A stretch of DNA of 64,000 nucleotides, taken from contig NC_135221.1 of NCBI RefSeq assembly GCF_052324685.1, positions 20,913,037 to 20,977,036 on the forward strand, in the 5' to 3' direction. This DNA comes from Brachyhypopomus gauderio. Taxonomy: Eukaryota; Chordata; Actinopteri; Gymnotiformes; Hypopomidae. Within the stretch, counting starts at the first letter, position 1; each line of letters starts with the position of its first letter. A program made the translations under genes and the position numbers. The notes below the pieces were generated by a model. That model worked only from the letters and a program-made list of their open reading frames with translations. It made no database searches and was not told the origin of the DNA. This document shows, piece after piece, positions 25,638-60,100 of the stretch.

Positions 25638-28600
25638 CTATTCGTGGAAGAGAACTGGCCTGGCCATGCCTGTGAGAATCTTTGGTACGTGAACAGATAT
25701 GATGTCGGAGATCATGTCCGGAAAATTCACCTTCACCGACAGGGACTGGGCCTGGACAAACAGGTTGTAGGTGAACTGATGAAGCTTCCTCACGATCTGC
25801 AGCCAGAGAGGGAACGTTCATGGAGAGGAGCATGAGAACGTAGAAGAAGAACTGAGCGCAGCATTAAGTCATGAATAAAGAAAAGCGTGAACATGAGCCC
25901 GTACCCGGTGCAGGGAGTTCAGAAGCTGAGTGAGCTGGAACAGTCTCTCGGCGTGGTCACCCCGACTGGTGTGCGAGACCAAGCGGTCCAGCTCGTTGAA
26001 GTAGGTAGATCGCAATTCGTCAAAACATCTCTGGCTCTTCAGGCCGTGCTCTGGAACTAAAGCAAACCAGACTCAAAGAGGAGAAACATTCCTGGGCCGG
26101 GGTAACTGTGAGAGAGCAGTCTTTATAACATTCTACACGACTGCTTCACTTCTGACCACCTACACATATTTTTTTATTTCTGTTTCAGTCTCAGCTCTAG
26201 CAAAAGTCAGACTACCTGAGGTTCTGGATGTAACAGAGATGATGCAACCTGGCTCCAACTGCAGTTACATTCAAGGCAATTAAAATTCAAGCATCTGAGA
26301 GCTGACACTTCATTACTTCATTAGCGTGGAGACAAGAGGCAACGCAGCCCCAAATCTTTTTTTCTGCCGCTTACATCAGCTGAACAGCAGCACGGCGCCT
26401 GACAGAAGCCCCTTAATTTAGTTCTCCAAATCGTTCCCTCCCACCAAGTGCGCAGTTACACCGTATATTAAACTGCCCAAACGTTGTGCTAGGTTCAGTC
26501 TTTGTCTTCATACATCATGTTTGTGACGATGAGGTTTGGACAGCAGAGCTGCGTGGAGCAGTCGTGGGGTGGAGGAGGTGACAGAGCTGTGTGGTGCAGT
26601 CGTGGAGGGTGGAGGAGGTGACAGAGCTGCGTGGTGCAGTCGTGGGGGGTGGAGGAGGTGACAGAGCTGCGTGGTGCAGTCGTGGGGGGTGGAGGAGGTG
26701 ACAGAGCTGTGTGGTGCAGTCGTGGGGGGTGGAGGAGGTGACAGAGCTGCGTGGTGCAGTCGTGGGGGGTGGAGGAGGTGACAGAGCTGCGTGGTGCAGT
26801 CGTGGGGGGTGGAGGAGGTGACAGAGCTGTGTGGTGCAGTCATGGGGGGTGGAGGAGGTGACAGAGCTGCGTGGTGCAGTCATGGGGGGTGGAGGAGGTG
26901 ACAGAGCTGCGTGGTGCAGTCGTGGGGGGTGGAGGAGGTGACAGAGCTGTGTGGTGCAGTCGTGGGGGGTGGAGGAGGTGACAGAGCTGCGTGGTGCAGT
27001 CATGGGGGGTGGAGGAGGTGACAGAGCTGCGTGGTGCAGTCGTGGGGGGTGGAGGAGGTGACAGAGCTGCGTGGTGCAGTCATGGGGGGTGGAGGAGGTG
27101 ACAGAGCTGCGTGGTGCAGTCGTGGGGGGTGGAGGAGGTGACAGAGCTGCGTGGTGCAGTCATGGGGGGTGGAGGAGGTGACAGAGCTGCGTGGTGCAGT
27201 CATGGGGGGTGGAGGAGGTGACAGAGCTGTGTGGTGCAGTCGTGGGGGGTGGAGGAGGTGACAGAGCTGCGTGGTGCAGTCGTGGGGGGTGGAGGAGGTG
27301 ACAGAGCTGTGTGGTGCAGTCTCTGGAGAGCCGTCACTCACCGACACTGAAGAGGAGCAGAGCCTTCATGCAGTGGAACTCCTCCTGCGTCACCTTGAGG
27401 CGGCCGAACCTCTGAGAGAGGTGTCGCATACGCAGGCAGTGCTCATACATACTGGACACCTGCATCCTCTGGCTGCAGGGAGAACAGGGCGGGGGACGAG
27501 TCATTACCCAGGGCCAGTCATCTCCATTACCCACGCCCGCCATCAAGCCTAGCCGCTAAACTGTTATTGCCGTGTGAAATTTCACCCCCACTGTAGATAA
27601 CTGGCTCGTTTCTCTGCTACCTCCCCTTACAGGGTGTATTTGTCAGGACAAGACCACATATTTACTATAAGCACCAGACGTGTGAAGGCATACCTGTACA
27701 TCAGAGCCTTGATGAAATATTTATGTGAGATGCATTATTCAGAGTGAGTGTTTAGATGGGAGGTATGGCAGGGTTAGGTTGACACCGAGGGCAAACCACT
27801 GTGAGTAAAGTTTACTCGTGCCTTTTGGCTTCAGTGAAAGAGCCGTACTTAAAAGCGAATAGCATGCTGTTAAAAGACCATGTTGCCAATAGAAAGCTAA
27901 AAAAATGCTAACCATCTGTTGCAGCAAAAGGTAGCCATGTTTATGGATCATTAATATTTCAGCAATGCTGGCGTATGTGACAGTGATGTTTTGCTAAACC
28001 TTTGCTTACTCATTGAACACAAGATCAGGGGCAAAGTAGAGCATTCTGGCATTGACGTTTTTGAAGGACCTCCATCCCAAGGCGAACACCATGATTTCCA
28101 TCCAGGAGTACTGAATTACAGCCAGCTGGTCATCCACGTGCAGCTTCTGAAAGCCTGCCTCAACAACAAGGCAGTGCAGAACAAACACCATCCACGGCAT
28201 CAACACACAAAGATCAAATATAAATCTGTTTGTGGGTGTCTGTTACATATGGCTGTTTAACAGAAATCACAATTATATGTATTAATTATTTAATTATATT
28301 AATGTATTTCTTTACTTTATTACTTGAAATTAAGTATATGGTTAAAATGCATATTAAAAAATTTTATGTACTATTCCATATATTTATTTTTTTATATGGC
28401 TACTTCATATACTGAGTTTAGATATTTTTTACAAACACTGTATATGCACTGAACATTACCTAATCTGTAACAAAATATCCATGTGAACATAATTTCCTTG
28501 AATATTTGTAAATGTATCATAAAAAAAAAACATTACCGCATCCTGTAACTTTTAGAGTTTCTTTACCAAAAATTCCCAGCCTAAGAGTCTTGCAAAGTTT

Positions 28601-29922
28601 AGTTCCAACAAGCCTGATCCTAATACACAGTCTAAAGGCCTAGATCAGCTGGAACAGATGCATTCGATTCAGGCTGCAACTAATCTCTCCAGGGTAGTAG
28701 ATCATGAATCAGAGCCACCCTTGTACTGCATCATTAATAACCGATGCTTGTTTGTTTTTGATGATCGATGAAGTATTCATCTTCTCTTCGTCTGCTGTTA
28801 CCTGGCACACCCTTGGCCCATTTGACAACCGTGACGAGCTGACGCTCTCCCAGCTCGTTGAGACTGGTCAACAGAGAGTCGGCCGAATCGGGCTGAGCCG
28901 GGTCATGGCCGGCGTTCACCGGTGCGGGTTCAATCCGAGCCAGGATGCTGAGGAGGCCATGCTGGTCCCGCAGAGCCGGGAGGGGAGAGACGGGCGTCAT
29001 GGCCGTGACCACTGGCACCCAGGCCGGGTCACTCCTGACTGCCACAGCCTGCTTGATTTTCCCCAGTTTTCGGGCTTGAATGAAGCAAAATAAGCAAAAT
29101 TAGGTGGACTGAGCTGGTTCAGCGAGCAGAATTAAACAGTTTTTAATCTACGTCAAATTACAGTTCCGCTTCATTGTTGATGTCACTTATCCTGCAACAC
29201 ATTTGATGTGTGTAGCTTATTTTAATGATGTAATAACATGTTTCATACAGTATGTATAGAAGGAGCTAAATAAACTCTAACCATATCCACACAATGTAGA
29301 GGAATAGTTTTCTGCGTTTATCTCAGTCATAGCAAAACCTAAGGCTAATTCCATTACATCCTTGCTCATTTAATTCCATTTCACTTCTGTTAAGATTGAA
29401 TCCCATTTTAAACCTCAAAAGCCCTGGGAACAATGTCTTTGAAAAAGACTGAGGAGCTATGAGCAGATACCTCGCAGACTCATCCCTGATTCAATGCATC
29501 TTTTAAGACGACAAGATGGGCAGTTCCGTCTCCGCAGCTTATCAATTGTGCAATTGTTTCTGGCAGCGCACAGAAACTTGTGTTTACCTAAAAACATAAA
29601 ACAGCTTGAATGACCTGCTGCCCCTGGAATTTAACCCTGTAGTGTTACTGTCCAAGGAAACAGGCCACAAAACCCCTGATGTGTTCAAATACCATTATGT
29701 GTGCAGAAGAAATTACATGTAAGCACGTAGGAGCAAGTTAAACCTGCGCTGCCTTGTGCAGATGACCAACACAGCGTCCTCAACACTCACCCTCAGCAGC
29801 CCTCTTGAAAAACACTTTGCAACTGGCACATGTAAGAACCCCATAGTGGCACCCAGAGGCCTGTTCTCCACAGATTTGGCACACGCGCAGGACTGGAAAC
29901 AGGAGGTTTGTGTTCTCCAGAC

Positions 29923-29979
<57 letters not shown>

Positions 29980-32900
29980 GTGGAAGAGGAGGAGGAGATG
30001 CCACACACAGTGTTATCACTTCAAGTGATCTATTTTAACACAATATCATCTGCTGAAACTGGCATGTATGCAGTGTGTTATCTCCCTGGACAAATAAACA
30101 GCTTTTCAAGACTATTTACATGGCCGGAGAACGCGGTCACATCCGCAATCCACAAACTGCCTGTATAATACACCAAATAAAATGCTGTCTAACTTGGTGG
30201 AATCTGAGCTTCTTTTGTGTCGTCCCCACACACAACAGCGCCTGTTTCTACGAACAGAGAATTCCTGCATAGGCAAAGATGGGTAAAAATCCTTTTTATT
30301 TTTTTTACTTAGAACTTAAGGATAATGACTTTAAGGACAACACTTGATGCACATACCAGCCATTATAAACAAAAATGTAAAACTAGAGTACTCTTGTTAT
30401 ATTAGGTAATCTAGGTCACATCTACTAGTGGAATGTGAGGAAATGTTTAGATGAGGATATGTGAATATAAAACAATCAAAATGATTTTTGTTACCTTACA
30501 AGATAGTACGTTAATACTCTATGCTACGTGGCAATGGCCCTGACAACCTCAAAACACACCCAGTGACACAGAATGGCACACAGTAAACACTGTTATTTTC
30601 CATCATCTGTGGAGTTCAAAGCCATGTTAGCTAGCCTGAATAATGAACGTTAATGATGTAACTATGACACCCGGTCCCCAAGGTCGTACTGTGTGTTAGT
30701 GTAAAAGAATACGGTTGCATTTCAACAAACCTAAAAGTCTGCCAATATATTTTTATAGAAACACAGACAATAGTTGGTCTGCTGCAGGTCATCACATGCG
30801 ATATAGCACAATATTTATTCATAATCATATTGTTGACACAGCTAAGTTTACAGTGAGGCATTTGAGGCTATAAATCAAAAAGAAGTTGGCAGTGGCCTTT
30901 TCAGAACATTTTAGCTGACGTTTCAAAGTAAAACGTTTTGTTTTTTTTTTTACCATGTTAACTATGTAGTGTTTTTAATTAACATTATAATTAATCTCAA
31001 CTTATTGGCATGCAAGTTAACCAACATTACCTTACCTACTGTAAGTAATGTCAGTTCAGTACTAGCTGTCAAATTCCAGGGCCGTTTTTTATTGATCTCA
31101 TATAGATTTGTCAGTCTTTATCTTCTCACAGCCTGATCCTGTTGTGACTAACACAGTGTGATCTTATCGTGACTCTCGAGTTATGATTCGAAAAGTTTTA
31201 GTTCTGACAAAAACGAACCACTTTTATCTGCCTCGTTAGGATATTCCCTACAAACTTTGCAGAACATTTCAAGTACAGAAAGGTCAAGTCAGCCCATGAA
31301 AACTTTCCACGAGGGAATGAAGCTGGGGAATCGTTTTGTTTTATATCCGTGCTGCGCCGACATTTTATTGCACACTTGGCTTTGTCATTGTTTGCCAACA
31401 AATACTATTGGTTTGTTTTGACTGGACGTGCAGTCCAGTCAAAACAAACCAATAAGACCCTTTTCTATGTCGAGAGGTTAAACATTCAAGTGAATTGTGT
31501 TAAATAGTTGTGTTAACACATTATGTTCACCACCTCAACATCAGCGTTCGCCAATCTCTGATGTTCGCCGACCTGAACAGTGTTGGGCCCGCCTGACATT
31601 TTAACACTGCTCCTGGGCCAGATGTCAGCCATGTGTATTTTAAAAAGTATCTGACAATTAGAAATCAACTTGCAGTATATGTGGCTAAATGTATTTTTCT
31701 TCTTTTATCTGCCTGTGCACAATGAGTCTGCATGTGCAAGATGCTATTACACAATATTTGCCTGCCAAGTTATATATTCACGTAAAATGCTGAAAAGACA
31801 TTTGAGAATGTTGATGAAGAAATGTATGGCAAATGTTACTCAAAACAGTTTGTCAGATAGTTAAATTGCTGAATTATATGATGGCTATATTAATTACTTT
31901 TGACAGAACATGTCACTTGACTGAAGGAAGCATGTCAGGATCATAGGCTGCTAGAATAGCATTAGCTGTAGCAGTCTAGTTTCAAGTTGCATGTGGCATG
32001 AGAAGAATGCACAAAGCCCTGAACACAACCTTCGCCCACATGCATTCATATGAATGATTTGTGGTCAAGGAGTTGCCAACATTAACACAACCTGGAAAAA
32101 CAACCATGCACAATAGCTAATCACACATCATACACGGGTATTAGGTTGCTTCTTTTAGGTATTTTATTCGTGGGGGTTTCTAAAGCATAAAAGTTTTTAA
32201 ATGTACATATTGTACACTGTCAATATCATAATAATTCCTGCATGCTGTATGAAATATATATAAACTGTAGCTATATTGTGAAGCAGCAGGCGCCTTCTTC
32301 AAAGCGTTTCCTAAAGAAACATCTAAACGTTTACAAGGTGACTAGAGGCCATGGAGACCAAAGGGGCGATAGATTAATATATGACAATTATGATACGCTT
32401 GTAGGATGCCATGTGTGCGTGTGTGCGCGCGTGTGTGCGCGCGTGTGTGATATGCAGTCAAAGGTGAGCAGGACAAACTCTTGGCAGGCGGAGTGGTGTG
32501 TGGACATATAGAAGTTGGAAGTATTTACATATTCATAGATCCGTGAAAATAAACGAAAGCAAAAGTGTAGAGTTACATCTAAGCCACTTTTAGGGCACAT
32601 GGAATTTTTGACTTCGGTCATTGAACCTATTTTAGCGTTAGGCCTACAAATTAATGCTTAGTCACATTGTGAGCCAGAGAATACCGTTGTGTGGGCCTGG
32701 AGCAGATAACGTACCTAGGAGGGACTCACATTGTGCAGATCTTCTCACTGACTGATCGTGGCACTTGGTGGATATTTAGAGGCTTGCTGTTTTCTCTTTA
32801 CCGGTTATTATAGGTCATCGGAACATAAAGATGCAGCAAACAGGCTCCACATAACAGCTGATACGTAAACCAAGGATCCATGCACATAAACACATGGCGA

Positions 32901-33388
32901 CGTTTATCAGTGATGTGAACTATTGGGGAAGTGGTACTAAAATGCTTTGCCTACCTATGGTCAAAGTTGAGTACACGTGTGTCCAGGAGCCCTGCTGATG
33001 AAACGGTGAAAGGTTTCCTCGTGAAGGTTCCGTCTGGGTAGAAATGCTGGGAAGCACAATCCATCAAAGGAGGAGCACCATATATATCACATCCGCCTAT
33101 ATCATAAAACGGTTCGTGTGGGTCTGGGTCGATCGGCGGAACCGCATAGTGTTTAGCAGATTGTGTGAGTATTGCAGCACTGTCGTTCCCGTGTAGACAG
33201 TCTCCACTGCTGTTCTTGATGTTAGTCTCGGTTTTCAGTAGACTATTTGTTCGTAACTCAACTAAGTTCCCAGTTTCACTATAAAATCTCGGTCTTGTCC
33301 AGTCTTCGTCAAAAGCGCTGAAGCGGTCGGCTGCACCGTTCATAGTGGACTCGTTTGTTCCGATACGTCTCTCCTGTGTTAGATCCAT
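25638..33388 (-). CDS. ar: Androgen-receptor-type nuclear receptor, divergent, eight coding exons
   Basis: This is a ligand-activated steroid receptor (subfamily NR3C), expected to bind androgen and act as a nuclear transcription factor. Coding exons, in transcript order: 33388-32955, 29921-29791, 29587-29471, 29074-28802, 28154-28010, 27472-27342, 26056-25905, 25796-25638. All have GT/AG borders and matching phases and encode 513 residues. Exons 3, 5 and 6 (117, 145 and 131 nt) have the human AR lengths. The DNA-binding domain spans about residues 159-224: finger one starts [10 protein letters not shown], finger two contains [14 protein letters not shown]. The ligand-binding domain keeps [26 protein letters not shown] and HQFTY, and ends PVLFHE. 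The start is the first ATG after an in-frame stop 15 bases upstream. The region before the fingers is only about 158 residues, against several hundred in usual ARs, and I see no FxxLF motif. Divergence suggests a fast-evolving teleost AR paralogue. An upstream exon cannot be excluded. Confidence 0.9.
26541..27325. repeat. 40-bp minisatellite, about 19-20 copies, in receptor intron 6
   Basis: The 40-base unit, made of ACAGAGCTGCGTGGTGCAGT followed by CGTGGGGGGTGGAGGAGGTG, repeats head to tail with a few recurrent C/T and G/A variants. The array occupies most of the intron between exons 6 and 7 of the androgen-receptor-type gene and ends about 15 bases from the exon 6 splice donor. Histidine/proline-rich minus-strand frames through it are by-products of the repeat. 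Confidence 0.97.
29927..29976. repeat. (AG)25 microsatellite forming the 3' splice-site pyrimidine tract of receptor exon 2
   Basis: Fifty bases of AG on the plus strand read as (CT)25 on the gene strand, followed directly by TTCCAG and the first base of the exon that encodes the first zinc finger. Confidence 0.95.
31406..31454. repeat. Perfect 22-bp inverted repeat with 5-base loop
   Basis: The arms are 31406-31427 and 31433-31454, perfect complements, with loop GTGCA between them. It lies in intron 1 of the receptor gene. No flanking duplication was noticed. Function unknown. Confidence 0.9.
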
Positions 33389-34545
33389 CGCTGACTTGTC
33401 TTAGTTTGACATCCTTTTCTCAGTTCACCTCAAGCATTTCATCATGTCCCCATAAATGATTGACAACCTGTTATACACTGTCAGACTTTTTGTCTTCTGA
33501 TGCAGCTGCTCCAGATAACGAATAATCTTAGTTTAGCCTTAATAAGTGTTCCGTTTCATCGTTTCCTCTATTGCATATTGGCCAGGGCTTAAACTTAAAC
33601 CTGCTGCGTCCTCCAGTTGCAGAAATAAATTCGCGGTTTGCTGATGCACAGACGACACTTTGCATAATCTCCTCCCATTCTGTAGTCAGGAGCACGAGAC
33701 ATATGTCATATTTATGGTTGTGTGTAACTATTAAAGGCTGGACAGGTATGATCCCCAGTATGCTTAAAGCTCTTATTACACCCCACTCACACATATGAAG
33801 AATGTTTTCAGCCCATGCGATTATATGAGCGCCTTGTCGCATTGACCTACTGTATCGCGGGTACAGTCAGTACTTTCTGCGAAAGGCGTGCTGAAGTTCC
33901 TAAAAATACTCGCCGGCTAGATATACATAATGCATGAATAACCCTTTTATTTTCTACATTGCTACGTCGTTACAAGACTAGACCAAACACACTAAATAAT
34001 TTGTTAAATCTTGTTGCTTTTTCTGAGTGAGAGAAAGGAACTTCATAGGAACTTAATTTTTCTAATGTCTGTGTTTCATTAAGGCTGCTACTTGCAAGAT
34101 ATATCAAAAATGTTGCATAAAAAAGGTCAGATGTCTTTGAGAGGGAACACAGTGTCTTTCGCCTCATTATCAAAGCACGATCCTGCTACATTTGAAACAT
34201 GGGTCTCGCATTCCACCAGATACCATTTCATGGCTTATTTAAAACCAAATATTTCGGTGTGCTTTGCTGAACATTCTATGTGATTAAAATTGGATGAATA
34301 TGTTTTGCTCATTCTGCAACAGTAGTATATGGCATTCGGGCCTGGATTTAATTTGCAGGCAGACATTTCTAGCAGGCCCCAACAAGTTGGAAGTATTTTC
34401 ATTTCCATGAATAGTAAAACATGTAGTCCAGAAACAGGTGTCATCTATGTTACAAAGTCAGAGGTTATACTGTCATAGTCTTAAGCTTTTGGGTAGCTAC
34501 TTATACACAATAAACTGAATAAATAGGGATTCCCTGCAGCCCGTT
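33389..34545. other. Upstream region of the receptor gene, no other gene
   Basis: This should hold the receptor promoter and 5' untranslated region, but no confident core promoter motif was identified. No further N-terminal exon with a clear transactivation domain was recognised. Confidence 0.4.
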
Positions 34546-35469: not shown

Positions 35470-37122
35470 GCCACTGTCCTGCTGCTCCTCACTGTTGTCC
35501 TGCTGCTCCTCACTGTTGTCCCGCTGCTCCTCACTGTTGTCCTGCTGTTCCTCACTGTTGTCCTGCTCTGTTCCTCACTGTTGTCCTGCTGCTCCTCACT
35601 GTTGTCCTGCTGCTCCTCACTGTTGTCCTGCTCTGTTCCTCACTGTTGTCCTGCTCTACTCCTCACTGTTGTCCTGCTGTTCCTCACTGTTGTCCTGCTC
35701 TGTTCCTCACTGTTGTCCTGCTCTACTCCTCACTGTTGTCCTGCTGTTCCTCACTGTTGTCCTGCTGTTCCTCACTGTTGTCCTGCTCTGTTCCTCACTG
35801 TTGTCCTGCTGCTCCTCACTGTTGTCCTGCTGCTCCTCACTGTTGTCCTGCTGTTCCTCACTGTTGTCCTGCTGTTCCTCACTGTTGTCCCGCTGCTCCT
35901 CACTGTTGTCCTGCTGTTCCTCACTGTTGTCCTGCTCTGTTCCTCACTGTTGTCCTGCTGCTCCTCACTGTTGTCCTGCTCTGCTCCTCACTGTTGTCCT
36001 GCTCTGCTCCTCACTGTTGTCCTGCTGTTCCTCACTGTTGTCCTGCTCTGCTCCTCACTGTTCTCCTGCTCTACTCCTCACTGTTGTCCTGCTCTACTCC
36101 TCACTGTTGTCCTGTTCTGTTCCTCACTGTTGTCCAGCTCTGCTCCTCACTGTTGTCCTGCTGCTCCTCACTGTTGTCCTGCTCTGCTCCTCACTGTTGT
36201 CCTGCTGCTCCTCACTGTTGTCCTGCTGCTCCTCACTGTTGTCCTGCTGTTCCTCACTGTTCTCCTGCTCTACTCCTCACTGTTGTCCTGCTCTACTCCT
36301 CACTGTTGTCCTGTTCTGTTCCTCACTGTTGTCCTGCTGCTCCTCACTGTTGTCCTGCTGCTCACTGTTGTCCTGCTGTTCCTCACAGTTGTCCTGCTCT
36401 ACTCCTCACTGTTGTCCTGCTCTACTCCTCACTGTTGTCCTGCTGCTCCTCACTGTTGTCCTGCTGTTTCTCACTGTTCTCCTGCTCTACTCCTCACTGT
36501 TGTCCTGCTCTACTCCTCACTGTTGTCCTGCGCTCCTCACTGTTGTCCTGCTGTTCCTCACTGTTGTCCTGCTGCTCCTCACTGTTGTCCTGCTATTCCT
36601 CACTGTTGTCCTGCTGCTCCTCACTGTTGTCCTGCTCTGCTCCTCACTGTTGTCCTGTTCTGTTCCTCACTGTTGTCCTGCTGTTCCTCACTGTTGTCCT
36701 GCTGTTCCTCACTGTTGTCCTGCTGTTCCTCACTGTTCTCCTGCTCTACTCCTCACTGTTGTCCTGCTCTGTTCCTCACTGTTGTCCAGCTCTGCTCCTC
36801 ACTGTTGTCCTGCTGTTCCTCACTGTTGTCCTGCTGCTCCTCACTGTTGTCCTGCTCTACTCCTCACTGTTGTCCTGCTGCTCCTCACTGCTGTCCTGCT
36901 GCTCCTCACTGCTGTCCCGCTGTTCCTCACTGTTGTCCTGCTGTTCCTCACTGTTGTCCTGCTGCTCCTCACTGTTGTCCTGCTCTACTCCTCACTGTTG
37001 TCCTGCTGCTCCTCACTGTTGTCCTGCTGCTCCTCACTGTTGTCCTGCTCTACTCCTCACTGCTGTCCTGCTGTTCCTCACTGCTGTCCTGCTGCTCCTC
37101 ACTGTTGTCCTGCGCTGCTCTC
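35470..37122. repeat. 21/23-bp minisatellite, about 1.65 kb and roughly 75 copies
   Basis: The unit CCTCACTGTTGTCCTGCTGCT (21 bases) alternates irregularly with 23-base forms ending CTCTGCT or CTCTACT. No unit contains a stop in any plus-strand frame, so frames of 500-620 codons are open in all three. They read only permutations of CSSLLSC, PHCCPA and LTVVLL and are not genes. The array sits in the last intron of the moesin pseudogene, directly against a decayed exon. Confidence 0.97.
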
Positions 37123-40549: not shown

Positions 40550-41030
40550 CAACACTGCTGTTCCTGACATACTCACACATGCAACACCCACTACTATGTC
40601 ACAACACTGCTGTTCCTGACATACTCACACATGCAACACCCACTACTATGTCACAACACTGCTGTTCCTGACATACTCACACATGCAACACCCACTACTA
40701 TGTCACAACACTGCTGTTCCTGACATACTCACACATGCAACACCCACTACTATGTCACTACAGTGCTGTTCCTGACATACTCACACATGCAACACCCACT
40801 ACTATGTCACAACACTGCTGTTCCCGACATACTCACACATGCAACACCCACTACTATGTCACTACAGTGCTGTTCCTGACATACTCACACATGCAACACC
40901 CACTACTATGTCACTACAGTGCTATTCCTGACATACTCACACATGCAACACCCACTACTATGTCACTACAGTGCTGTTCCTGACATACTCACACATGCAA
41001 CACCCACTACTATGTCACTACAGTGCTGGC
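40550..41030. repeat. 52-bp tandem repeat, about 9 copies
   Basis: The unit contains GCTGTTCCTGACATACTCAC then ACATGCAACACCCACTACTATGTC. Copies differ mainly at CAACACTGC versus CTACAGTGC. It is located in an intron of the moesin pseudogene. Confidence 0.95.
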
Positions 41031-43738: not shown

Positions 43739-46209
<2,471 letters not shown>

Positions 46210-48009: not shown

Positions 48010-49500
48010 TATGTTGATTATTGCTGTTCAGAAATATACATGTCTACGTTAAACATGTTTTTTTGGCTTTAAATGTTTTTAAATTCTCGGCTATAATAGT
48101 AAACAATTTTAGATTAAACAATGTTTATTTTAAGTGCCGACACAGATGTTTACGCGTTCTTCTTTGACACTACAAACCAAAGGCCGTGAAACACCTACCG
48201 CCACCTAGCGTTACGGAGGGAGTTATACTAGTAATATACAGTACCAGCAGTAATGCGCCTGTGGGGAATCACAATGGAATGGAAAGAAAAAAAAAAAGAA
48301 ATATAAGCCACGTGACTAATCATGAATTCATTTTACACCCTCTCTTAAAAGAGAGTTTACACCCTCTCTAAAATTTCTTAATGATGGATTTTAATGAAAG
48401 AGTTTATTTTCTATTTTCTTTTCATAGACAGGGAAATCTAATAGAAAGAGAAATGTAGATGGATAGACAAAAAATAGAAAAGCTTTCTGCAGTCTGCAGA
48501 TTTTTTCTCTGCTTTCAGCAAAATGTGTGGAGTAAGCAAAGTAAAGCAAACAAACGAAAAAAAAAGAAACAGAATCACATTCCAGGGGAGGTAAGGTATA
48601 GAACCATCTGCCCCTGAGGCGTGGAGGTGTCCCAGTAGCTGACTGTCGTCTACAGAATCATCTGAGCAGCTGTTCTCTTCAGACCAATGGCAGCTCTGGT
48701 GTTAGCAGCAGAATATAAGGAATTTAGCACAGCGCAAAAGCTTGTGCAATTGTGGGCTGGCGTTTTGTCATTTCTTGATGTGTGTTCAAAAAACACAAAA
48801 AAATCCCCAAAACCTTTACTCCCAACATACTTTACAACAATTAAAAAGCAAAAAGAATAGATTAGGCCAACAGTATGTGTCCCAAAACTATATGTCACCA
48901 TGGAAATTAAATGTTACTGTCTCTGAATCCCGGCCACCCTCAGCCGTGTCCCCCATAGCCAACACAACTCTATCACCTTTCTAATTATAAAGCGCCACAC
49001 TGGCCCTCCAAGAATGGAAGTTTAGGCAGATCCATCTGTGTCCTAAAATTAGCACCTCTTGGTGACCAGGCCCCCCATTGCTGTCAGGCAGACATACACT
49101 GCGTCCACTTACTGTCTGTGTCCCTGAACACAACACTGTGACTACATACTACCCTTGTATCTCCAGACTGAAAGGATAATATGCTTGAACTATTATGCTA
49201 GCATAACTGTCTGATTTGGACCTGTTGACAACAGTGCGGGGTCTTTGAGGTAAGCGCTGTGGCACTTTTCAGGTTTTCGGATTTATGTCACTAAGGTTTA
49301 TATGTTGGTTTAATGCTTTAAATGTCTTAAAAGAAAAAAATATTCTTTCTGAATATTTTGAACAAAAATACTTTCCTAATGACGTTGTGTTTTCTGATTC
49401 TACCTTAAAGTCCTTGTTAACAAATAAACTTCTTGTCCAAAGTTTACTCTAGAGTCCATTTGCTGAAGACTAAATGGAGTTTTGAGAAGTTCACCAGAGG
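48010..49500. other. Intergenic between the small gene and asb12
   Basis: The small gene (minus) and asb12 (plus) are divergent, so both promoters should lie here. No coding exon or clear core promoter motif was identified. Confidence 0.4.
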
Positions 49501-50754
49501 ATGATTTTGCAAAGTCCCAGCGATATGAGTATCATGGACATTTCTAAGATTTTTTCCCTCCTCCAACCCAGAGAGGATGAGGAGGACGGTTGCCAGCAGC
49601 TGCACCAGGCCATCGCCGACGATGACGCCAAGCTGCTGGCCGAGCTGCTGTCCCAGGAGCAGTACCGTAGATGCATTAACAGCCGCAGTGGCTGGGGCAT
49701 CCCCGGCACACCTCTGCGCATGGCGGCCGCCCGGGGCCACGTCCGCTGCCTGGAGGTCCTGCTGAGTCACGGGGCCGAGGTGGACAGCCTGGACGTCAAG
49801 GCCCAGACGCCCCTTTTCACTGCCGTCAGCGGCAAACACCTGGAGTGTGTCGTCGCCCTGCTCAAGGCGGGCGCCAACCCCAACGGCAGCCCCTACAACA
49901 ACTGCTCGCCGGTGATGACTGCAGCCCGAGAAGGTGACGTGGACATCCTGAAGGAGCTCCTGCACCACGGGGCCGAGGTCGACGCCCACGCCAAGGTGCC
50001 GGACTGGGCGTCCAATACCACGGGCTGCCGAGGGCCCCTCTACATGTCCGCAGTTTACGGGCACCTGGACTGTTTCAGACTGCTGCTACTGCATGGGGCC
50101 AGTCCGGACTACAACTGCGTGGAGGAGAAGATGCTGGCTAGGGTGAAGCAGCCCAAGACAGTGCTGGATATGTGTCTCAGGTATGGGTGTGGGGTGGAAT
50201 ATGTTCAGCTCCTCATAGACTTTGGAGCAAACGTCTATCTCCCCACGGTAATTACTGACAAGTCAACCGCACAGAACGAGTCTGTCATGCTGTTGCTCAA
50301 AGAAAGAGGTAAGCTTCTTCACACCATACAGTCTCTTTGTTTATCTCACGACCAAAAGCCTACTGTAAGACCCTCAATAATTAAGTTATGATCATTTGCT
50401 TTGATTGGTTGGTTTTAATTGCCTCTGCCGCTGGGTTAAGTTAAAATATTTATATTATTAAGATGGACAGATAATTTCCTCATTCATTTTTATATCAGAA
50501 TTTGATGTGCATGCATGTGTGTGTGTTTTTTTTGTGTGTGCATACAGTGTATAAAAGTACAAATGTGTTTGTCACTATGCTCTAATGTTTTTTAAACATA
50601 CATTTTCCTTCTGTTTGCAGTGTGCCCCAAAACCCTGATGTCTCAGACACGACTTGCAATATGGAAGTACCTCGCAATGGCAAACAAAGTGTGTGCAATT
50701 GAGCACCTGGATATTCCCCAGGTGCTGAAGAACTACTTGAAAAATACCACATGA
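49501..50754 (+). CDS. asb12: Ankyrin repeat and SOCS box protein 12 (asb12), two exons
   Basis: ASB proteins recruit substrates to a Cullin-5/Elongin B-C ubiquitin ligase through the SOCS box. Exons are 49501-50308 and 50621-50754 (GT/AG, phase 1) and give 313 residues; human ASB12 has about 309. Conserved landmarks are MDISKIFSLLQP, NSRSGWGIPGTPL, VDSLDVKAQTPLFTAV, YNNCSPVMTAA and GPLYMSAVYGHLDCFRLLLL. Ankyrin repeats span about residues 61-210. A variant region with LIDFGANVYLP follows, and the SOCS box is on exon 2 (CPKTLMSQTRLAIWKYLA ... LDIPQVLKNYLK). The ATG at 49525 (MSIMDISKIF) matches the human start better than 49501, so the first eight residues are uncertain. It lies next to zc4h2 in the same strand relation as in human. 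Exon 1 is GC-rich compared with its surroundings. No defects. Confidence 0.97.
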
Positions 50755-57045: not shown

Positions 57046-57194
57046 GATGCCTATTTCTAACACAGGACTTGGGGTTAGGAAATAACCAGTTGTTTCCCTA
57101 ACATTGCTAATATTCATTTTGTTTCTGATATCCACCTCTTAGATATTCAGGTGGACCACAAAAATGATGTTCCCTAAAACCGAAAGCTGACAGG

Positions 57195-60100
57195 ATGGAC
57201 AATACAGGCAGCTCCGTGTCTGAGTGCAGCGATCCCAATGGCTATGTCAACAAAGTTTTCAATGTGTCCCTGGACATGGACAGCGAAACGGGGATTGTGC
57301 GAATCCGGGAATCCAAGTTTGCGGGTCCTGTCCCCTACCAGACACCCGTCAGAGAAAAGCAGGAGCCTCTCCGGGCTTCCAGGACCACAGGTATCTGGAG
57401 GATCCTGCACCGCCGGAAAGGGCCCTCCGACTTTGAGAGGCGTCCTCACTCTATGATCCTCCCTGGAGAAGCATCCATCCCCAAGCTGTCGTTCACTGAC
57501 AGGGTAAAGGGCTTCAAGAAACTAAAGTCGCCATCAGTCTTTAGAGGCAAAGTTGGCAAACTCTCTGCTGCAAAGTTTCAGGGTGGCCTTCGAGATGGCA
57601 TGAGCGAAGAGAGTCGTGACTCTCCTACCTCACTGCACTCTCAGAGGAACATACTCAGGAATAAAAGCAAGAGGCACTCATACGCCGGCTACACCACTGA
57701 CTTTGACTGCTCCCTTGAGGATATAGACCTTTCTGCAACACTCGAGGACGATCATCAGGTGCCTAAGAGCGCAGGCAGCCATCAGAATGGATGTAAGAAT
57801 CTGGAGAGAATCACGTACGTGAAGAAAGCCCAACCCAACTTTTCCAACTGCAACAACTCATCTGTGGCAGTTCAGGAGGAGCGTTATGTGAAGGATTGCC
57901 CCAAGGTACCGCTAGGGGGAAGACGGTCAAAGGGGGGTGATGTTTGGAATTACTTGAGAAGAATTTCCTTCATAGGAAGGGGAAGTTCAACTTTATTAGA
58001 AAAGAGTTTTGACTCCATGCACACACTGGACAAAACAATTGATTCGGACTATGGCTCTGTTGACATAGAATGTATCAAAGACTTTAATCGTGCACCTAGA
58101 CAAACAGGCCCTGATGCGAAAAGCAGCCATTTTGGAGGCCTGTTCAAGTTTTTTAACAGTGTGGCTGAAACTGCCCGAAAATGGAGGAATTCATCTAGAA
58201 CCTTCTCACCACCTGAAGGAGAGTGCTCCCCTGTTGGCTCGCCGAGAACACAGCGACTTGGGGAATTCCCCCATTCTCTTTCTATGACGTTAAGGAGTGA
58301 GGAGAAAGCTGAGGCCTCAACACCTGCCATGTCCCAAGATGTGTGTGAGGTGGTCTCATCTGCTGAAGAAGTGAGCCCTTCTCCTCGTGTGGTGCTGAAG
58401 TCCTGGAAAGCCTGCCCAGACTCTCAAAGTGCCAACGGATTACAGGGCAGCATCTCCGATGGAACAGAGTCCCAGTTCACCTCCACTCACACCTCTTTGG
58501 CAACCATTGAGAACCACCAGAGAGGTGATGCTCCAGAGGAGAGCTCTCTATCAGAGCCTGAGCTCCAGATGGACCTCCTGTCACAGGAGGGAGGGACTCA
58601 TGAACAGAGCGAATCTGGATCTGAGGTTTCTGCCATTGCAGACAAATCCAAAGACCCGGGCACCCAAAATATTAGCAATAAACAAGATATTTTTAGGGAT
58701 AGGGAGGTAGTTCCAGACTGTCCAGATGAAATTTTCAAGGTAAGATTTATTGTTTAATGTTCATCTTTGTTTTCAGGAACTGTCAACTGGGATTTGGTTT
58801 ATTGTTGACATTTTAGAAGATCTGAAGTGTTAAATTCCACTGGACGTGTTTCTTCATACTGTTCATTCATTATAACATATCATATAACAGAGCCATTGCT
58901 TTTCATTCCATGACTAACCAATTCAAATTGGCATAACAATTCTGTTTCTTTTTTCTTTTTGAAACAATGGTATATGGATGAGGAAGAAAGAGGACACTCA
59001 GTGTTTAAACATAATGGATTTCCTTTTGCTCCATCTGTTGGCCACTAGAGGTACAGCAATTAAGTGCAACACAGAAAACAACAGCCGGAAAGACCCATTT
59101 AAACCCCCTAACTAGAAATCACCAAGCCACCAGGGAAATATGCTATTTCCAATAGCTCTTTATCAAATAGCTTGTACAGCTCAATTACTTAGGCTGTTAG
59201 ATTATATGAGTCACATATTTCAAGGTAAGCTTCACCAACAGCCTTAGTCAGTCAAGCTAGAGTTGGAGTTAATATTTGAAGTTTTACTGAATACTATTAT
59301 CTCCAATTATAATGATCTCTCTTATGGCAGCGTTCCAGTATGATCTGCCTTATGACAGTGATCCAGTGTGATCTACCTTATGGCAGTGATCCAGTGTGAT
59401 CTACCTTATGGCAGTGATCCAGTGTGATCTCCCTTATGGCAGTGATCCAGTGTGATCTAGCTTATGGCAGTGATCCAGTGTGATCTCCCTTATGGCAGTG
59501 ATCCAGTGTGATCTACCTTATGGCAGCGATCCAGTGTGCTCTCCCTTATGGCAGTGATCCAGTGTGATCTCCCTTATGGCAGTGATCCAGTGTGATCTAC
59601 CTTATGGCAGTGATCAAGTGTGATCTCCCTCATGGTAGTGATCCAGTGTGATCTCCCTTATGGCAGTGATCCAGTGTGATCTACCTTATGGCAGTGATCC
59701 AGTGTAATCTACCTTATGGCAGCTCTAGCCCTCCTCCCCAGTTCCAGTACTCTAAAAGCAGGCTGTGTGGAAGCAACTGTACCTCACATTCAGGTCACTC
59801 ACTTTGTCTCTCCCACATAACCACGTGGCTGAAATAGGCCTCGGCAGGAGGCTGTCGCTCGGGCGAAGGAAGTCTGGGATGCTTCAGAACCTCTAGACCA
59901 ATCAGGGTGCTCCCTCCAAAACGAGCCCGGCCTGCGTCCGTGTGTGTGGGCGGGCCCAGTACGCAGTGTCCCACCATAAAGGAGGAGGTTCTGTCCTCAG
60001 AACAGGATCGCGTCTGCCTGTGGGGATGGCAGGACTCCCCAGGCACGCTGCAACCACTGCTCCCACGAAAGGCTCGTCCTCCCAGGAGACCACGTTCTGT

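What the first reader, a model, noticed from the sequence alone, without database searches (positions are those of the whole stretch)
25638..33388. Androgen-receptor-type gene with a drastically shortened N-terminal domain
Eight exons with perfect phase agreement give a 513-residue receptor. Only about 158 residues precede the zinc fingers, against several hundred in ordinary fish and mammal androgen receptors. The N-terminal part lacks a recognisable FxxLF motif and long AF-1 region, and there is an in-frame stop just upstream of the ATG. The LBD is intact, so this may be a receptor that depends on AF-2, or acts as a competitor of a full-length paralogue. Fast evolution of one teleost AR duplicate is known; such a short NTD would be notable.
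Basis: partly seen in the sequence, partly recalled or inferred. Interest (0 to 1): 0.8.

Follow-up and report, generated by a model that had tools for sequence, protein, structure and literature searches.

The report
Fish androgen receptor with stub N-terminus
This fish gene appears to encode a hormone-binding androgen receptor whose front part has shrunk to about 158 residues and whose DNA-contact boxes are changed, an unusual and still untested variant of a known fish receptor.

Summary
On the minus strand, eight exons (33388 to 25638) join in phase into a 513-residue steroid receptor; the first zinc-finger cysteine is residue 159 and an in-frame stop lies 12 bases before the ATG. The ligand-binding domain (LBD) is closest to androgen receptors: 143/228 identical to human AR, 157/229 to a reconstructed ancestral AR; N705, Q711, R752 and T877 are kept. 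No FxxLF or WxxLF occurs, and no upstream first exon that fits was found, by scans of limited sensitivity. Substitutions lean towards the fast-evolving teleost duplicate (AR-B of Douard, ara of Ogino), whose medaka N-terminal domain (NTD) I estimate at 255-346 residues, so this NTD is roughly half as long. Best reading: a functional, androgen-binding, AF-2-led receptor. No RNA, orthologue or paralogue could be examined, so competitor, missing-exon and decaying-gene readings stay open.

The parts
32955..33388 (-). exon 1: start codon and most of the short N-terminal domain (residues 1-145)
   Evidence: open reading frame, donor gtaggc in phase 2; chance test
33401..33403 (-). in-frame stop codon, 12 bases upstream of the ATG
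   Evidence: open segment begins at 33400 (sequence)
29791..29921 (-). exon 2: end of linker and first zinc finger, with P-box C-A-S-C-K-V
   Evidence: (PF00105)
29471..29587 (-). exon 3: second zinc finger, D-box C-A-A-R-N-N-C
28802..29074 (-). exon 4: hinge and start of the ligand-binding domain
28010..28154 (-). exon 5: ligand-binding domain, includes W741, M745, R752, F764 equivalents
27342..27472 (-). exon 6: ligand-binding domain
25905..26056 (-). exon 7: ligand-binding domain, two residues shorter than human AR (P849, T850 absent in the alignment)
25638..25796 (-). exon 8: helices 11-12 and AF-2 end, T877 kept, two extra residues before helix 12, stop codon
26544..27321 (.). 40-bp minisatellite, 19.5 copies, inside intron 6
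29927..29976 (.). AG/CT microsatellite a few bases from the exon 2 acceptor (not part of the protein)

Best explanation
This is a teleost androgen receptor gene, most likely the fast-evolving duplicate (AR-B of Douard et al., ara/ARalpha of Ogino et al.). Its NTD has shrunk to about 158 residues while the zinc fingers, the ligand pocket and the helix 12 region stayed recognisable and open. SHOWN: the gene structure as a model, the short NTD in that model, absence of FxxLF and WxxLF, kept zinc ligands and hormone contacts, changed P- and D-boxes. INFERRED: it binds androgens such as 11-ketotestosterone, enters the nucleus through the largely kept RKLxK hinge motif, and activates genes mainly through AF-2 with little help from the NTD. 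The classical FxxLF-driven N/C interaction would be absent. An acidic-aromatic stretch ([10 protein letters not shown]) may act as a residual activation patch. It would thus work like a natural AR45-type receptor encoded by its own gene.
For: Eight in-phase exons without a stop. Best LBD matches are AR structures: ancestral AR 5.8e-103 and human AR 1.2e-94, against 5.8e-84 for the best progesterone receptor chain. N705, Q711, R752, T877, L704, M745, F764 and K720 kept. All eight zinc-binding Cys present. Short NTD, no FxxLF. The only other upstream ATG exon of 45 codons or more with a donor score of 1.5 or more on the minus strand of 33.1-49 kb is phase 0 at 47.8 kb, whereas the three best acceptor-like sites inside exon 1 are phase 1. 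Duplicate assignment: F856L, M895I and A896S match states that Douard et al. report for divergent AR-Bs (PMC2637867 section 4). 18 of 75 DBD positions differ from rat AR, closer to the 22 of 86 that they count for AR-B than to the 2 for AR-A. The end of exon 1 ([12 protein letters not shown]) resembles human WYPGGMVSRVPY (recalled) at the expected place.
Against: No transcript, orthologue or paralogue was available. Exon 1 codon usage is neutral. Y739L and I899V, reported for divergent AR-Bs, are absent, and M749L and Q783H may be general to fish (recalled). E893D, E897D, M734L and the extra residues before helix 12 could weaken AF-2, on which this reading leans. Changed P- and D-boxes could weaken DNA binding. 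The upstream-exon scans are of limited sensitivity: their donor cut-off of 1.5 would miss two of this gene's own seven donors (exons 3 and 5).
Confidence: 0.53

Rival explanations
1. A competitor or dampener: it binds androgen and DNA or dimerises with the full-length paralogue, but activates poorly, so it reduces androgen signalling.
For: Short NTD without FxxLF but a kept pocket. The human AR45 variant without the NTD can activate or repress AR depending on co-regulators (PMC10452427, passages).
Against: AF-2 surface residues V716, K717, K720, V730, I737 are kept, although M734 is Leu and E893 and E897 are Asp. Medaka ara is described as a hyperactive receptor, not a repressor (PMC10014959 introduction). 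D-box changes S597A and D600N may hinder dimerisation with the paralogue (inference). That the genome has a full-length paralogue was not tested.
Confidence: 0.2
2. The gene model is incomplete at the 5' end: a longer NTD is encoded by upstream exons, or the assembly lost part of exon 1.
For: Medaka ara has nine exons against eight in arb (PMC10014959, passages). Acceptor-like sites lie inside exon 1 (33033 score 4.2, 32994 score 3.3). Codon usage of exon 1 is neutral. A 71-codon open stretch 0.6 kb upstream (34185-33973) holds an FNKLF. My scans are weak: the internal-exon scan (acceptor 5 or more, donor 4.5 or more) would recover only exons 2 and 6 of this gene's six internal exons.
Against: No N in the window. 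The longest stop-free minus run from 29.9 to 49 kb is exon 1 itself. No phase-compatible upstream first exon at the cut-offs used. The FNKLF stretch has no donor scoring above -1.5, and open stretches with F..LF occur by chance in 88 of 300 simulated strands. tblastn of recalled human NTD pieces gave only chance-like matches in the window, though it also did not list the end of exon 1, so it is insensitive. Strong joint ATG, open frame and donor signal for exon 1.
Confidence: 0.17
3. A decaying duplicate on its way to loss, still open by chance or by recent relaxation.
For: Many substitutions, a changed P-box and D-box, and a short NTD. The same copy was lost in several teleost groups (PMC2637867).
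Against: No frameshift or stop in 513 codons and GT/AG at every intron; hormone contacts and zinc ligands kept.
Confidence: 0.1

Closest known systems
Divergent teleost AR-B (Douard et al. 2008) = ara/ARalpha (Ogino et al.)
   Same: AR-type LBD, strongly changed DBD, shared states F856L, M895I, A896S
   Different: NTD about half of my estimate for medaka ara; eight coding exons in this model against nine exons in medaka ara; Y739 and I899 unchanged. Whether other AR-Bs share Ala577, Ala597, Asn600 or the extra residues before helix 12 was not examined
Teleost AR-A / arb/ARbeta, e.g. stickleback ARbeta1
   Same: Ligand contacts; R779S, a state reported in some teleosts (PMC1192819 passages)
   Different: Stickleback ARbeta1 has 682 and partial ARbeta2 735 residues, against 513 here; Douard et al. 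count 2 changed DBD positions for AR-A
Human AR45 splice variant
   Same: Complete DBD, hinge and LBD with little or no NTD (PMC10452427 passages)
   Different: AR45 is a splice form of the full-length gene; here the only first exon recognised is short and encodes 145 residues of its own
Glucocorticoid receptor
   Same: Whole-protein search ranks it first because the solved chains span DBD plus LBD
   Different: DBD and LBD taken apart match AR best

Membership tests
Androgen receptor (NR3C4) | two C4 zinc fingers and a nuclear-receptor LBD | tested here: met
   PF00105 1.3e-25 and PF00104 8.5e-35
Androgen receptor (NR3C4) | closest to AR among steroid receptors in DBD and LBD | tested here: met
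   DBD best hit rat AR 1.3e-35 (ancestral receptor 2 follows at 4.2e-35); LBD best hits ancestral and human AR
Androgen receptor (NR3C4) | hormone contacts N705, Q711, R752, T877 | tested here: met
Androgen receptor (NR3C4) | P-box C-G-S-C-K-V of oxosteroid receptors (definition recalled) | tested here: not met
   C-A-S-C-K-V, G577A; I treat it as a departure within the family, which rests on the DBD and LBD as a whole
Androgen receptor (NR3C4) | long NTD with FxxLF and AF-1 | tested here: not met
   158 residues, no F..LF or W..LF, no Pfam match in exon 1 (no positive control); so it is an AR without the standard NTD, if the 5' end is complete
Androgen receptor (NR3C4) | binds androgen and activates transcription | not testable with these tools
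   needs assay
Divergent teleost AR-B / ara | substitutions listed by Douard et al. | tested here: inconclusive
   Of eight states read from the paper, five match (M749L, Q783H, F856L, M895I, Ser at A896), L744 is I not V, Y739 and I899 are unchanged; two of the five may be general to fish (recalled)
Divergent teleost AR-B / ara | tree placement with other AR-Bs and a second AR-A gene in the genome | not tested
   no fish sequences in the collections used; the genome search gave no answer

The most novel reading that the evidence does not exclude
A gene-encoded, nearly NTD-less androgen receptor that has also remodelled how it touches DNA (P-box Gly to Ala, two D-box residues changed). It would act through AF-2 on a different set of sites or partners than its full-length paralogue, so that androgen response in this fish is split between an AF-1 receptor and an AF-2 receptor.
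Probability: 0.2. Interest if true: 0.75.

Novelty: new variant of a known kind. Interest (0 to 1): 0.45.

Why it matters
The AR is thought to depend mostly on its NTD (AF-1 and the FxxLF contact; general knowledge). A natural, constrained AR with almost no NTD would test what AF-2 alone can do in an animal, and would extend the known case of diverging teleost AR duplicates.

Tried and rejected
Searches of exon 1 against Pfam, NCBIfam and PDB sequences gave no match. No positive control was run, so this is no proof that the exon is unrelated to AR NTDs. tblastn of recalled human NTD pieces against the window gave only chance-like matches (best E 0.37, in a frame with a stop); its list (cut at 40 rows) did not include the end of exon 1 either, so it is insensitive. 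A codon-usage test of exon 1 was not informative. A search for extra internal exons found one candidate at 47849-47626, but its cut-offs would recover only exons 2 and 6 of this gene's six internal exons. A first-exon scan found one candidate, in the wrong phase for the acceptor-like sites in exon 1, with a donor cut-off that five of the gene's seven donors pass. An upstream FNKLF at 34008 was checked and looks like chance. Rejected: glucocorticoid, mineralocorticoid or progesterone receptor identity.

Paper searches on fish AR N-termini (one search found none) showed no title or abstract start on so short an NTD. The lists were capped (for example 25 of 209 papers) and most subscription papers are not in the library, so this does not show that it is unpublished. 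For that reason I moved the incomplete-gene-model rival from 0.15 to 0.17 and the best explanation from 0.55 to 0.53.
Full report
Observation. The minus-strand exons 33388-32955, 29921-29791, 29587-29471, 29074-28802, 28154-28010, 27472-27342, 26056-25905 and 25796-25638 have GT/AG boundaries and agreeing phases and encode 513 residues. The window holds no N. The first zinc-finger cysteine is residue 159. The open frame containing the ATG begins at 33400, so the stop is 12 bases upstream.

Is exon 1 real? It is the longest stop-free minus run between 29.9 and 49 kb (149 codons). Its donor ranks within the best 83 of 3710 GT sites of the strand. A first exon with ATG, at least 144 open codons and a phase-2 donor of that quality appeared in 0 of 1000 simulated 5-kb and 0 of 400 simulated 14-kb strands; a stop-free run of 149 codons alone appeared in 14 of 400. 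Against it, a codon-usage score gives -0.007 per codon in frame, no better than the other two frames (-0.028, 0.07). The same score gives 0.281 for exons 2-8 and 0.378 for the ankyrin ORF, but only 0.015 for another long ORF, so the test has little power here. No Pfam, NCBIfam or PDB match was found for exon 1.

It is not significant for the whole NTD (301 of 1000 shuffles as good) and weak for the last 58 residues (37 of 1000). I take exon 1 as probably real, with its end probably homologous to the end of ordinary AR NTDs.

Could a long NTD lie upstream? Medaka ara has nine exons while arb has eight (PMC10014959, passages), so a split NTD is a serious rival. Inside exon 1, acceptor-like sites at 33033, 32994 and 32991 score 4.2, 3.3 and 1.7, within the range of the gene's own acceptors. 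All three would need a phase-1 donor. Scanning 33.1-49 kb for ATG exons of 45 codons or more with a donor score of 1.5 or more gave a single candidate, at 47.8 kb, in phase 0. These scans are not sensitive: the 1.5 cut-off would miss the donors of exons 3 and 5 (0.57 and -0.19), and the stricter internal-exon scan would recover only exons 2 and 6 of six internal exons.

Six F..[LVM]F words lie in the three upstream minus frames. One, FNKLF at 34008, is an exact FxxLF in a 71-codon open stretch 0.6 kb upstream of exon 1. No GT in that stretch scores above -1.5, its surroundings do not resemble an AR N-terminus, and 88 of 300 simulated 10.6-kb strands hold such a word in an open run of 50 codons or more. 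So I read it as chance, but name it because an NTD exon there would overturn the finding. An ordinary AF-1 exon is not visible in this assembly; RNA remains decisive.

Which receptor? In the whole-protein search the top three PDB chains are glucocorticoid receptors, because those chains span DBD plus LBD. Taken separately, the LBD matches the reconstructed ancestral AR (157/229 identical) and human AR (143/228) best, and the DBD matches rat AR best. N705, Q711, R752, T877, L704, M745 and F764 are kept; R779 is S, a state the stickleback paper reports in some teleosts (PMC1192819, passages).

Neighbourhood. Two exons with the zf-C4H2 domain (PF10146) lie at 44.2-45.5 kb, and an ankyrin ORF that looks like ASB12 (name recalled) at 49.5-50.4 kb. 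In human, ZC4H2 and ASB12 lie near AR on Xq (recalled), which fits the ancestral AR neighbourhood. The stretch 1-25 kb was not scanned for domains (one search failed).

Which duplicate? Douard et al. (PMC2637867; outline and the whole of section 4) describe an early teleost duplication, loss of AR-B in several lineages, and an accelerated AR-B in percomorphs with 22 changed DBD positions of 86 (2 for AR-A). They name changes such as Y739L, F856L, L744V, M749L, Q783H and M895I, with Ser at an AF-2 Ala (their A898, my A896) and Val for I899 in most AR-Bs. Ogino et al. call the fast copy ara (PMC10014959, introduction and passages). Of these eight states, five match here (M749L, Q783H, F856L, M895I, Ser at A896), one is changed to another residue (L744I) and two are unchanged (Y739, I899). 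M749L and Q783H may be common to fish ARs (recalled). With 18 of 75 DBD positions differing from rat AR, the fast copy is the likelier identity, but no tree could be built.

How short is it? Stickleback ARbeta1 has 682 residues and the partial ARbeta2 735 (PMC1192819, passages). Medaka nonsense mutations S507X in exon 6 of ara and L503X in exon 4 of arb (PMC10014959) let me estimate, by matching exon positions to this protein, an NTD of 255-346 residues for ara and 343-433 for arb. This is my arithmetic, not the paper's, and the ara range covers either placing of its extra exon. The present 158 residues are therefore about half (46-62%) of the nearest described copy, rather than under a third as a comparison with human AR (about 558, recalled) would suggest.

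What else is changed? The P-box reads C-A-S-C-K-V (G577A), and the D-box C-A-A-R-N-N-C (S597A, D600N). The general roles of P-box and D-box in DNA contact and dimerisation are as summarised in PMC7958344 (passages); the roles of the single residues are recalled. The LBD lacks the equivalents of P849 and T850, and has two extra residues between S888 and V889, before helix 12; E893 and E897 are both Asp and M734 is Leu. There is one SUMO-type motif, LKTE, in the NTD, and the only LxxLL lies in the LBD. The stretch before the first Cys counted (157 residues) has 15 aromatic and 22 acidic residues, with an acidic-aromatic run [10 protein letters not shown] that could be a small activation patch (inference).

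Mechanism. The pattern, a kept hormone pocket and zinc ligands with a stub NTD, is best read as a ligand-dependent receptor working mostly by AF-2. It is similar in plan to AR45, which lacks the NTD and can activate or repress AR activity depending on co-regulators (PMC10452427, passages). A competitor role is possible but not favoured, because medaka ara is reported as hyperactive and the D-box changes would not help heterodimerisation (inference). A decaying gene is less likely given 513 intact codons.

Verdict. Most likely a real gene of an ordinary family with an uncommon architecture; a new variant of a known kind. Untested: transcription, binding, orthologues, and the partner gene. The own-genome search did not complete.

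Noticed in passing
44207-44509 and 45281-45547, + strand: Exons of a zf-C4H2 gene (ZC4H2; Pfam PF10146), head to head with the AR gene
   Followed up: partly
49486-50388, + strand: Ankyrin-repeat ORF (Pfam) that looks like ASB12 (name recalled)
   Followed up: partly
57168-58754, + strand: 529-codon ORF without a Pfam match, possibly a large N-terminal exon of a Rho exchange factor gene (guess)
   Followed up: no
47849-47626, - strand: Exon-like open stretch with good splice signals, gene unknown
   Followed up: no
34185-33973, - strand: 71-codon open stretch 0.6 kb upstream of AR exon 1 that holds the word FNKLF; chance-like and without a usable donor
   Followed up: yes
35475-37120: Minisatellite of 21/44-bp units about 2 kb upstream of AR exon 1, giving a 623-codon repeat ORF on the + strand
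   Followed up: no
26544-27321: 40-bp minisatellite of 19.5 copies in AR intron 6
   Followed up: no
40550-41028: 52-bp tandem repeat, 9.2 copies, 97% matches
   Followed up: no
29927-29976: Perfect AG/CT microsatellite forming the pyrimidine tract of the AR exon 2 acceptor; its length could affect splicing
   Followed up: no
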